DNA of 56,402 bases from Synechococcales cyanobacterium S06 (lineage in GTDB: Bacteria > Cyanobacteriota > Cyanobacteriia > Cyanobacteriales > JAABRE01): the NCBI GenBank assembly GCA_011391125.1, contig JAABRE010000027.1, forward strand, positions 1-56,402, given 5' to 3'. Below, piece by piece: positions 46,313 to 56,402 of the stretch (position 1 is the stretch's first letter; each line of letters opens with the position of its first letter). The translations under genes and the position numbers were made by a program. Under the pieces are notes generated by a model. It did not search any database. It saw only the letters and a program-made list of their open reading frames with translations, and was not told where the DNA came from.

Positions 46313-46640
46313 TAGGAGTTGGGGAGTTGGGGAAGTAGGGAGGTAGGGAGTTGGGGAAGTAGGGAGTTGGGGAGGTAGGGTGTTGGGGAAGTAGGGTGTT
46401 GGGGAGGTAGGGAGTTGGGGAGGTAGGGTGTTGGGGAAGTAGGGAGCTGGAGAAGTAGGGAGTTGGAGATTTAAGAATATAGTTCCCCCAATACCCTAAT
46501 CCCCTAATCCCCCAATACCCCAATACCCCAATCCCCCAATACCCCAATACCCCAATCCCCCAATCCCCCAATACCCCAATACCCCAATCCCCCAATACCC
46601 CAATCCCCCAATCCCCCAATACCCTAATCCCCCACCGTAT
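46313..46640. repeat. G-rich array followed by C-rich array
   Basis: From 46313 to about 46470 the plus strand is made of units such as AGTTGGGG, AAGTAGGG and AGGTAGGG. From 46483 to 46635 it is made of CCCCAATAC/CCCCAATC units. Each is a degenerate 7-8-nt tandem. The two halves are roughly complementary, so single strands could fold into a long hairpin or G-quadruplexes. It lies between the receptor and the convergent PATAN-REC gene. A long minus-strand ORF through it encodes only low-complexity sequence. Confidence 0.85.
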
Positions 46641-53251: not shown

Positions 53252-53557
53252 TTATGAGACTAAATAAATACGCTCTTCTCCTTTTTCAAGGGTTAAACGA
53301 TAACCACAGGCCTTAACTATTTGTAATAAATTAGTAAGTTTTAAATCTTTTTGTTTTCCAGAACGAATATCTTGAATTACAGAAGGAGAAATCTTCGCTT
53401 CTTTTGCTAATTGACGTACGGATTTCTGGTCATTTTCCATTAAGGAAATTAATAATTCAGAGAGTAAAAATTCCTGATATCCTTCCTCTAATTTAGCTTT
53501 AAATTCGGGATTTTCCATTAATTTATTAAAGGTTGAGCTTTCATTATTTTTATTCAT
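53252..53557 (-). CDS. HigA/XRE-family antitoxin
   Basis: A 101-residue protein with a C-terminal helix-turn-helix: 'SVRQLAKEAKISPSVIQDIRSGKQKDLKLTNLLQIVKACGYRLTLEKG'. The ATG at 53557 overlaps the end of the upstream toxin reading frame (toxin TAA at 53550-53552), the usual HigB-HigA order with coupled translation. An upstream in-frame start would lie inside the toxin gene. The toxin is interrupted by a MITE, so the antitoxin may be orphaned. It binds DNA and normally represses its own operon. Confidence 0.85.
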   Translation of the reverse strand: MNKNNESSTFNKLMENPEFKAKLEEGYQEFLLSELLISLMENDQKSVRQLAKEAKISPSVIQDIRSGKQKDLKLTNLLQIVKACGYRLTLEKGEERIYLVS

Positions 53558-54037
53558 AATATGTTCCTTTTTCATTTCTTTTGATATAATCATTCATGTA
53601 TTTTATAGCTTTTTCCTTATCTTTTTGAGGTAATTTTTGCTGTTTTTTATAAAAACCATTGGTGATATAGCATTTTCAGATTAAATGAGATACAACCCCT
53701 CACCCCCCTACCCCCCTCATCCCAAAGGGAGAGGGGGGAAAAGAGTCCTCATAAATTTGGCAAGTGCTATAATAATTTTTTTACCCGTAAAGAAAAAGCA
53801 TAAAAATCGATCAGGTTGTGGTTTAAAAGCGTATATTTTATCGCCTTCATTGCGGAATAGTTCTTTATTACTAATTTTACCAAAATCACCTATTCTTTTT
53901 ACTAGAAATAAAAATTTTAGTTGCTGTTTTTCTGGTAGTGAATAAAAATACTCTCTCGCTGCACTATTGCTATCTTCCTCAAAATACCACTCTAACTGGA
54001 AAGCATCACCAACATAAATTACATATTCTTTGTTCAT
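53550..54037 (-). pseudogene. HigB/RelE-like toxin interrupted by a family A MITE
   Basis: From the ATG at 54037 the frame gives 'MNKEYVIYVGDAFQLEWYFEEDSNSAAREYFYSLPEKQQLKFLFLVKRIGDFGKISNKELFRNEGDKIYAFKPQPDRFLCFFFTGKKIII', then enters the MITE and ends at 53717 with a foreign tail. Beyond the element the gene continues 'TNGFYKKQQKLPQKDKEKAIKYMNDYIKRNEKGTYYE' to a stop at 53550-53552. Excision of the 102-bp element plus one TA restores a 127-residue Gp49/HigB-type protein ('..IYAFKP...RF..FF....I.L.NGF.KK.QK.P..'). The C-terminal catalytic region is separated, so the toxin should be inactive. Confidence 0.88.
53668..53769. mobile_element. MITE family A copy inside a HigB-like toxin gene
   Basis: 102 bp, begins TAGCATTTTCAGATTAAATG and ends TTGGCAAGTGCTA, flanked by TA (53666-53667, 53770-53771). 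One extra G in the internal G-run distinguishes it from the copies at 7444 and 41246, so it is a recent insertion. Confidence 0.9.
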
Positions 54038-54383
54038 ATTGTAACACTTTACCAGTACAGTTAGCGATAGTCAAGACTAATTTGAAAAATCACTCTTTTC
54101 TATTTCTTTAATAATTTTCATGGTTTCTAAACTCACCGTTGTAACCCGCATTATTAAGTCAATTACGGTTTCTTTGTAATCAGCAAAACAATAATTATTA
54201 AACTTTTCAGCAATAGTTTGATCCTTCGCTTTTTTCTCCTTATATTGGTCTAAAATCCACTCAATTGCGGACCGATTTCCTAATTTATATTCCCATACTT
54301 CGGGGGGAATTTCTGTTAAGGTGGTGACATCATCTATTAATATTTGGTTTTTGGTTTTATCTACTTTTAATTTGGGTTTTATA

Positions 54384-54442
54384 ACCCCCCAACCCCCCTT
54401 ACCCCCCCTAACCCCCCCTTGAAAGGGGGGGGTAGGGGGGGT
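54384..54442. repeat. In-frame GC-rich palindromic repeat in the methyltransferase gene
   Basis: CCCCCC-run/CTTGAAAGGGGGG palindrome encoding 'TPPTPPFQGGVRGGKGGWG' on the gene's strand, with frame preserved. It lies in the C-terminal specificity region. Confidence 0.8.
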
Positions 54443-54654
54443 AAAGTCAATTCTTTTCACAGAATAAGGTTTAATTGTTTCATAATTAATATGTAAATCC
54501 ATTAATTTTTGTCCCCAATTTTTCCACTGATTAAAGTCATCATAAAAGGGAATTCTTGGGAATTCTCGCTTTAAATTTAACTCATATTTTTGGCGATATT
54601 TCGGGTTATGTAAAACACCATAAATGTAATAGAAAATGTCTTCTTTTGTGATTT

Positions 54655-54742
54655 CACCCTCACCCCCTACCCCTCTCCCACAGGATGAGGGGAGTCTTCT
54701 CCCCCCTCTCTCTGAGAGAGAGGGGGGTTGGGGGGGTGAGGG
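54655..54742. repeat. In-frame GC-rich repeat of the 'PPSLSERGG' type
   Basis: CCCTCTCTCTGAGAGAGAGGGG palindrome with CCCTCACCCCC flanks, encoding 'PSPPQPPSLSERGGRRLPSS' and more in the methyltransferase frame. The core differs from the other three repeats and resembles the family A MITE interior. Confidence 0.75.
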
Positions 54743-55521
54743 TTGATAATATTCCCTAAACTGCTGCAATCCCCAATCAGTAATATTTTCCTGTCTGTTT
54801 CCTCCCTCATCATAAGTATATAAGGCAAAACAAGTAGCTCCTCTGGCACAAAAATTTAAGTCACATAAAGTATTAATAGCTAAAATAAGAAAATCAGTTT
54901 GTTCATTATTAGCAAAACAAATAACTTGATTAACTGAATTGGTATTATTAAATAATAACGGTTGTGCTCCTCTTATATCAATAGGAATATAACCAAAATA
55001 AAGGTATTTTGCGACAAAAGGTCTATAATGAGCTTTTCTTAAGTCTTCTTGATAAAAAATACCTAATTTTTCTTTTCTTAATTTATCTCTTTTGATCATT
55101 TTACTCCACTTAATTAAATTTCTTTCCCCAAGAAAATTATCGACAACGGGATTAGATTCTTGTTTAATATCTTGATAATTATGATCTTTTTTATATTCAA
55201 TCCATCTGTTAACTTCATGATTATATTCATCTATGAAAAACTTACTTTTAGCTATTAAATTTTCTAAATCAAAATCATAAACCCATTCATCCCTATTCGT
55301 AGCAACTCCATTAGAATATAACTCAAAAATAGTTTGTTTATTTTTCTTGTCAACCAAAGGAATTAAACTTTCAAAATCATTATTAGTTAGGTTAATCCAA
55401 TTATTATTTTTATCGGGTGTAATATGGGTAAAATTAAGGGAATCAAATTTAGTTTTAGCTAAATAATCCCGCTTTTCTTGTCCACTATTGAAATTAATTA
55501 AAGAATTATAAAATATTTGAC

Positions 55522-55566
55522 ACCCCCCCTTTAATTCCCCCCCTTGAAAGGGGGGGTTAGGGGGGG
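55522..55566. repeat. In-frame GC-rich palindromic repeat (PPNPPFQGG type)
   Basis: CCCCCCTTGAAAGGGGGGG palindrome with flanking C- and G-runs, encoding 'TPPNPPFQGGELKGG' within the methyltransferase frame without disrupting it. Confidence 0.8.
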
Positions 55567-55980
55567 TAGATTTTTTTACTAAAAAAGTAATAGCAACCCC
55601 TATCATAATATTAAAAACATTACCAGTTGTATCACCTGCTCTAATATCTCCACCTAAATCTATCGTATAAATATAATCAAATTCATTAGCTACAGTTTTT
55701 CTAAAACCATCAAATCCTTTAGAGTTAATAAAAGAAGAATTTGTAATAAATGCCACAATTCCATTCTCATTTAATCTATCAGTTGCCCATCTTAGAAACC
55801 TCGCATACATATCATAAACCTTCGTTTTTTGAGCGGTACTTTCCTTCACATAAGTATCTTTAATTCGCTTATCTATGGCAGGATATTCACGATTTTTATT
55901 GTTATCATTTTCGTTTTGCTGATTTGCATTATAGGGAGGATTACCGATAATTACTGATATTTTACGGTCATTTTGTCGCA

Positions 55981-56022
55981 CCCCCCCTAACCCCCCCTTT
56001 CAAGGGGGGGACATAGGGGGGG
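55981..56022. repeat. GC-rich palindromic repeat that supplies a stop codon
   Basis: CCCCCCCTAACCCCCCCTTT followed by CAAGGGGGGG and ACATAGGGGGGG. On the gene's strand it reads '...PPMSPP-stop-KGGLGGV', with TGA at 56000-56002. The orientation is opposite to the repeat at 55522, whose same core reads TTTCAA (Phe-Gln) instead of TTGAAA. Confidence 0.85.
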
Positions 56023-56402
56023 TCTCCAAAGACATGGCGAATAAATCGCCCTGTTTTTGCGCAAAAGAAGTATGATCTAAAGTATCCACTAAACAAATAT
56101 TATTAAACTCCTCATATTCCTCCATTTTTTGCTGATAAGTATATTCAATATTTAGGTTAGCAATGTAATATGGTAAAATAGCCAATTCATTACAATGAAT
56201 CTCATTTTGATACTTATATTTAAGCTTATCTTTCGGCAAATATTCGATTAATTCTGTTATAAATGTACCTGTACCTGTCGCAGGGTCTAATATTTCAACT
56301 TGTGGATCAGCTAATAATTTATTAAAGTGTTTATGTACTAGATAATCCGTACTTTCAATCATGAATTTAACAATTTCATTGGGAGTATAAACAATACCCA
56401 AC
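56000..56402 (-). pseudogene. Type ISP-like DNA methyltransferase, N-proximal fragment (cut by window edge)
   Basis: At least 133 codons up to the right edge of the window. It carries 'VYTPNEIVKFMIESTDYLVHKHF' and methyltransferase motif I 'ILDPATGTGTFITELIEYL' (SAM binding), followed by 'NEIHCNELAILPYYIANLNIEYTY'. It ends 'FAMSLETPPMSPP', where the last residues and the stop come from a GC-rich repeat. The nuclease and helicase parts expected of a type ISP enzyme would lie beyond the edge. The apparent ATG at 56401 is inside a conserved motif and is not the gene start. Confidence 0.8.

What the first reader, a model, noticed from the sequence alone, without database searches (positions are those of the whole stretch)
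54077..56402. Type ISP-like methyltransferase carrying four GC-rich repeats, one of which splits it with a stop codon
Three repeats (54384, 54655, 55522) are tolerated in frame as Pro/Gly-rich inserts ('TPPNPPFQGGE'). The fourth (55981-56022), in the opposite orientation, reads TTGAAA so that a TGA falls in frame between motif I (DPATGTGTF) and motif IV (NPPY). Single slippage in the C7 or G7 runs does not restore the frame, as both shifted frames soon stop. The repeats behave like protein-coding palindromic elements and are lethal to the gene only in one orientation or phase.
Basis: seen in the sequence. Interest (0 to 1): 0.7.

Follow-up and report, generated by a model that had tools for sequence, protein, structure and literature searches.

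The report
Restriction gene interrupted by palindromic repeat
One of about fourteen near-copies of a DNA-cutting-and-marking defence gene in a cyanobacterium carries four short GC-rich palindromic repeats, three harmlessly read through as extra protein and one creating a stop signal that should switch the gene off; sister copies hold the same repeat at the same spot in a readable form.

Summary
The minus strand at 54077-56402 encodes the 3' two-thirds of a single-chain restriction-modification enzyme; four GC-rich palindromic repeats lie in it and the fourth (55981-56022) puts a TGA (56000-56002) between motif I and NPPY. The enzyme is best described as DrdV-like (Type IIL/IIG), not Type ISP: it lacks the translocase. 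The window is a whole contig of a 4.8-Mb cyanobacterial draft that holds about 14 close paralogues. At the stop site ten are empty and four carry the repeat: two open (centre TTTCAA), two closed (centre TTGAAA: this gene and C113). The 39-nt elements of C113 (closed) and C85 (open) differ only by two adjacent bases, GA versus TC, which are reverse complements. Three repeats are in-frame loop inserts. Downstream coding sequence is still constrained (dN/dS as in intact copies), so the interruption is recent or reversible. Best reading: a recent nonsense (OFF) allele produced by a coding palindromic element. A reversible switch by inversion of the hairpin centre is possible but unproven. New in detail, known in kind.

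The parts
54077..55981 (-). 3' reading frame, 634 codons plus stop: methyltransferase motif IV (NPPY) to the target-recognition domain; possible GTG restart
   Evidence: Type_ISP_C 1.6e-89, Eco57I; DrdV 7lo5 E 1e-51
56000..56401 (-). 5' reading frame up to the TGA: N6_Mtase start with motif I DPATGTGTF; cut by the contig end
55981..56022 (-). site A palindromic element C7 TATGT C7 TTGAAA G7 TTA G7 that replaces a conserved helix and holds the stop
56000..56002 (-). in-frame TGA in the hairpin loop; the centre pair of bases (GA here, TC in C85 and C131) decides closed or open
55523..55566 (-). site B palindromic element, in frame (TPPNPPFQGGELKGG), loop between two strands
54655..54744 (-). site C repeat of another family, in frame (SPPQPPSLSERGGRRLPSSCGRGVGGEG); counterparts in all paralogues that reach this site except C136, which has other repeats there
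54385..54441 (-). site D palindromic element, in frame (TPPTPPFQGGVRGGKGGWG), loop before a strand

Best explanation
The gene is one of about 14 close paralogues of a DrdV-like single-chain restriction-modification enzyme. These genes have collected short GC-rich palindromic repeats that are read in frame as Pro/Gly-rich loops. At site A a C7/G7 palindrome replaced part of a conserved helix just before motif IV, in the phase where its centre forms a codon: TTC (open) in C85 and C131, TGA (closed) in this gene and in C113. The TGA ends translation between the SAM-binding motif I and the catalytic NPPY, so neither methylation nor restriction by this chain is expected. Because cutting and marking sit in one chain, losing both together should be safe for the cell. 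Shown: the stop, the element, its open and closed forms at the same site, the otherwise intact and constrained frame. Inferred: loss of function, recency, spread of the closed allele between this gene and C113 by gene conversion, and origin of the GA/TC difference by template switching at the hairpin.
For: TGA in frame with both flanks. This gene and C113 share the junctions GGAGA|C7 and G7T|GCGACAA although their upstream flanks differ. C113 and C85 elements differ only at two adjacent bases. Downstream dN/dS is 0.32-0.46 for pairs with this gene, against 0.23-0.46 among the other pairs, and there is no other stop in 774 codons. Sites B-D are loops. DrdV is the closest structure by sequence (for paralogue C90) and by fold. 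Coding elements elsewhere in the genome are otherwise open: of 16 copies inside open frames only these two hold a stop.
Against: No functional data. The assembly is a draft; contigs C88 and C136 both break at the same conserved stretch, so the 5' third of this gene cannot be assigned. The C-terminal piece could be made from the GTG just after the stop and might assemble with the N-terminal piece. Site A destroys a conserved helix, so open copies may be impaired too and the TGA may have arisen in an already dead gene; in that case the constraint seen is only older history.
Confidence: 0.75

Rival explanations
1. Reversible on/off switch: inversion of the two-base hairpin centre (TC to GA and back), by polymerase template switching between the palindrome arms, toggles Phe codon and stop, so individual cells vary which restriction enzymes they make.
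For: C113 and C85 elements identical but for GA/TC, reverse complements; both centres occur next to the TAA arm genome-wide; reversible spacer inversions of 2-5 bp in coding inverted repeats are documented in yeast (PMC8604942); frame otherwise intact.
Against: Two substitutions through TTTAAA, a centre that exists in the genome, give the same result; the chance that two substitutions happen to be the reverse complement is about 1 in 9. Copies of the mostly intergenic C6TAC7 family keep TTGAAA or have TTACAA, none is flipped. No population data.
Confidence: 0.12
2. Ordinary decaying pseudogene: the element hit the gene in a closed phase, the gene is dead and only too young to show more damage.
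For: Site A replaces near-invariant residues; other family members are cut short (C108 and C154).
Against: C113 carries the same closed allele with 656 otherwise open codons after it; dN/dS is not raised; it does not explain why four paralogues share the site.
Confidence: 0.35
3. Split enzyme: the two frames are translated separately (restart at GTG 55981) and assemble into a working enzyme.
For: GTG just after the element, preceded by G runs; the 3' frame is intact.
Against: Residues 12-30 around NPPY are not placed with confidence when the 3' part is modelled alone; no paralogue is organised as two genes except C113 with the same element.
Confidence: 0.05
4. Assembly or base-calling error in the C7/G7 tracts.
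For: Homopolymers in a 168-contig draft.
Against: No single-tract change opens the frame; C113, on another contig, has the same TGA.
Confidence: 0.04

Closest known systems
DrdV (PDB 7LO5, 7LVV), Type IIL/IIG restriction-modification enzyme of Deinococcus wulumuqiensis
   Same: Full-length colinear match of paralogue C90, nuclease to target-recognition domain; best fold match of the window protein, TM 0.76 on the query
   Different: In the alignment with C90, DrdV has none of the palindromic inserts; no stop
Type ISP enzymes LlaGI and LlaBIII
   Same: Coupler, methyltransferase and Type_ISP_C specificity domain
   Different: No SF2 helicase/translocase here; the match starts only at the coupler
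Rickettsia palindromic elements (RPE) and other protein-coding palindromic repeats
   Same: Palindromic, inserted in frame in open reading frames
   Different: 39-60 bp instead of about 150 bp, C7/G7 arms, concentrated in restriction-modification genes rather than unrelated genes
Small dispersed repeats of cyanobacteria (Elhai et al. 2008, SDR)
   Same: Very small repeated elements in a cyanobacterial genome
   Different: SDR5 is reported to sit in HIP1 sites; the empty site here is no HIP1. The original paper was not held, so other SDR families could not be compared
Phase-variable Type IIG enzymes of Campylobacter and Helicobacter
   Same: Single-chain restriction enzyme with homopolymer tracts in the coding sequence (own knowledge; reviews listed were not read)
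   Different: There, slippage of one tract switches the frame; here no single-tract change opens it and variation is unproven

Membership tests
Type ISP restriction-modification enzyme | SF2 helicase/translocase in the same chain | tested here: not met
   Pfam scans of full-length paralogues find coupler, N6_Mtase, Eco57I, Type_ISP_C only; LlaGI/LlaBIII align from the coupler on
Type ISP restriction-modification enzyme | Coupler, N6 methyltransferase and C-terminal specificity domain | tested here: met
DrdV-like Type IIL/IIG enzyme | Single chain of about 1030 aa with N-terminal nuclease, methyltransferase and specificity domain, colinear with DrdV | tested here: met
   For paralogue C90: 7lo5_A over residues 1-843 and 891-1064
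DrdV-like Type IIL/IIG enzyme | The window gene itself has the nuclease domain | tested here: inconclusive
   Contig ends inside the gene; two N-terminal halves end at contigs C89 and C137 and cannot be assigned
DrdV-like Type IIL/IIG enzyme | One-strand adenine methylation and cleavage activity | not testable with these tools
   needs biochemistry or methylome
Protein-coding palindromic elements (RPE-like) | Palindrome inserted in frame in genes, absent from orthologues or paralogues | tested here: met
Protein-coding palindromic elements (RPE-like) | About 150 bp with a conserved peptide, in unrelated genes (RPE proper, PMC10969869) | tested here: not met
   39-60 bp; 14 of 16 copies in restriction-modification genes
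SDR5 of cyanobacteria | Insertion inside HIP1 (GCGATCGC) | tested here: not met
   Empty site GGAAAATACCACTCGAATTAAACGA; HIP1 rule from PMC4390886
GTAG/CGTC-tagged REP | Unpaired GTAG or CGTC at one end | tested here: not met
   Flanks of the C7 copies differ and share no such tag
Phase-variable restriction-modification gene | Both states found within one strain or between isolates | not testable with these tools
   One genome, no reads, no sister strain held; both states are seen only between paralogues

The most novel reading that the evidence does not exclude
A two-base inversion of a hairpin centre toggles a stop codon in a family of self-contained restriction enzymes, so that coding palindromes act as reversible on/off switches and give a clonal cyanobacterial population a mixed set of active restriction specificities.
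Probability: 0.1. Interest if true: 0.8.

Novelty: new variant of a known kind. Interest (0 to 1): 0.42.

Why it matters
It shows open and closed forms of one coding palindrome at the same codon position in sister genes of one genome, a natural comparison for how such elements stay tolerated or become lethal. The concentration of this element in restriction-modification genes (14 of 16 copies) was not found described in the papers searched. If the centre can flip, it would be a new way to vary restriction-modification genes, and it can be tested with amplicon sequencing and a methylome.

Tried and rejected
Orthologues in close strains: none held, the nearest genomes are of other families in the order; records very near the window may be left out of genome contigs. 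Bridging contig for the missing middle of the gene: not found. Poly-C tracts as such being special to restriction genes: dropped, C7 gives 411 matches genome-wide. Related C6 elements in genome G039: 0 of 30 copies in open frames, so the coding habit is not general. Element as breakpoint of domain swapping: C136 is a mosaic, but its breakpoint lies downstream of site A. Elhai et al. 2008 could not be read.

Full report
What is there. The minus strand of the window end encodes a methyltransferase chain whose frame is interrupted once by TGA at 56000-56002. The four repeats are at the coordinates given. Three keep the frame open. The window is the whole contig C88 of a draft cyanobacterial genome of 4,814,433 bases in 168 contigs, and the gene runs off its end.

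What the protein is. Pfam names the 3' part Type_ISP_C and Eco57I and the 5' part N6_Mtase. A full-length paralogue (C90, 1068 aa) matches DrdV (7LO5, 1015 bits) from its first residue to near its end, whereas LlaGI and LlaBIII match from the coupler on at about 435 bits; no helicase domain is found. The predicted structure of the window's 634-aa frame (mean pLDDT 80.8) has DrdV as its best fold match. 7LO5 is DrdV, a Type IIL enzyme (PMC11842806); RM.DrdV recognises CATGNAC (PMC6430315). The enzyme is therefore DrdV-like: nuclease, methyltransferase and specificity in one chain.

A gene family. The genome holds about 14 close paralogues and at least five more distant relatives. Their 3' parts are 58-67% identical to the window frame over the full-length matches, with patchy identity that indicates recombination; C136 is 98% identical to this gene near the contig end but its 3' part is closest to C113 (dN 0.094).

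Site A. In ten paralogues the site reads EN(T)xRIKRQN(D/E)RKISVIIGNPPY, as in nearly all relatives from other bacteria. In four it carries the C7/G7 element. C85 and C131 have centre TTTCAA and are open (PPFKGG); this gene and C113 have TTGAAA and read PP*KGG. The 39-nt elements of C113 and C85 are identical except for GA against TC. This gene and C113 share both junctions, so the closed allele was probably copied between them (inference). The paralogues nearest to each filled copy upstream of the site are empty, so the site was filled more than once or the element moved by conversion. Unlike the other sites, site A is a replacement: E, N, R and Q of the EN..RIK.QN segment are invariant or nearly so in 36 sequences and form a helix before the motif IV strand in the model of a relative with an empty site (L084, helix 455-465, strand 469-474). 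Open copies may therefore also be changed in activity.

Sites B, C, D. They coincide with alignment gaps against relatives (residues 140-148, 416-442, 519-534) and with segments of pLDDT below 50 between well-predicted elements (142-151, 425-440, 521-531). Relatives in other cyanobacteria carry repeats of other families inside the same gene (L084, L085), so these linkers are recurrent landing places.

The element elsewhere. A genome-wide pattern search gave 16 copies of the C7 type after setting aside a mostly intergenic family with arms C6TAC7. Of these, 15 lie inside open frames and 14 in restriction-modification genes: this family, other ISP-like genes, an MmeI-type gene, an Eco57I methylase, a DUF7149/DUF7814-Eco57I gene; one is in a NAD(P)H-hydrate epimerase/dehydratase gene. 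Even with a generous 5% share of such genes in the genome this is far from chance (the share is my assumption, and copies related by duplication are not independent). Only this gene and C113 have the stop. In genome G039 a related C6 element has 0 of 30 copies in open frames, so the coding habit is particular.

Why closed or open. The full element is open in three of six frames. In the frame used at site A the centre is a codon, TTC or TGA. Two routes from one to the other exist: inversion of the two central bases by template switching at the hairpin, documented and reversible in yeast coding DNA (PMC8604942), or two substitutions, for instance through TTTAAA, which occurs in the genome. The data do not decide; the copies of the other family show no flipped centre, which speaks against frequent flipping.

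State of the gene. Downstream of the stop the frame has no other lesion, and pairwise dN/dS with the other paralogues is 0.32-0.46, inside the range of intact pairs. The interruption is recent on this scale, or the gene is sometimes open. With motif I and NPPY on separate frames, loss of both activities is the expected result (established knowledge of N6 methyltransferases; not tested).

Verdict. Observation confirmed; interpretation partly supported. A nonsense allele of a DrdV-like enzyme caused by a coding palindromic element, with open and closed forms among paralogues. The reversible switch is the most interesting reading left open, at about 10%.

Noticed in passing
L013 (G000:C119), 861-aa frame: MmeI-type enzyme with a DUF559 nuclease-like domain inserted between the methyltransferase N-terminal part and NPPF, bracketed by palindromic repeats that are read in frame.
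   Followed up: partly
L220 and L225 (G000:C89, C137, contig starts): N-terminal halves of two family members carry the same C7 element directly after the nuclease E-x-K (WESK), replacing conserved residues; one of them probably belongs to the window gene.
   Followed up: partly
window 53252-53593 and 53717-54037: HTH antitoxin-like gene and Gp49/RelE-like toxin-like gene next to the restriction gene; the C-terminus of the latter (RTLFPPLPLG) is encoded by a REP-like repeat at 53703-53738.
   Followed up: partly
window 7479, 9897, 13930, 41281, 52630, 53703: Second palindromic repeat family, CTCACCCCCCTACCCCCCTCATCCCAAAGGGAGAGGGGGAAAA, in six copies; not tested whether all are intergenic.
   Followed up: no
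window 46485-46633: Tandem array of CCCCAAT(A)-like units, about 150 bp.
   Followed up: no
L085 4013-4192 and 6489-6639: Arrays of another palindromic repeat (CCCCCAGAATTGGGGGCAGGGGGGCGATT) inside the open frame of a related restriction gene of MAG CG_2015-22_32_23.
   Followed up: no
L166 (C154) end and L188 (C108) start: Two further paralogues are cut short, one right after a site D element, the other after site B; sequence after the C154 break looks like the start of an insertion sequence (my reading).
   Followed up: no
L016 (G000:C132): One copy of the otherwise intergenic C6TAC7 repeat lies in frame inside a ResIII/SNF2-type helicase gene.
   Followed up: no
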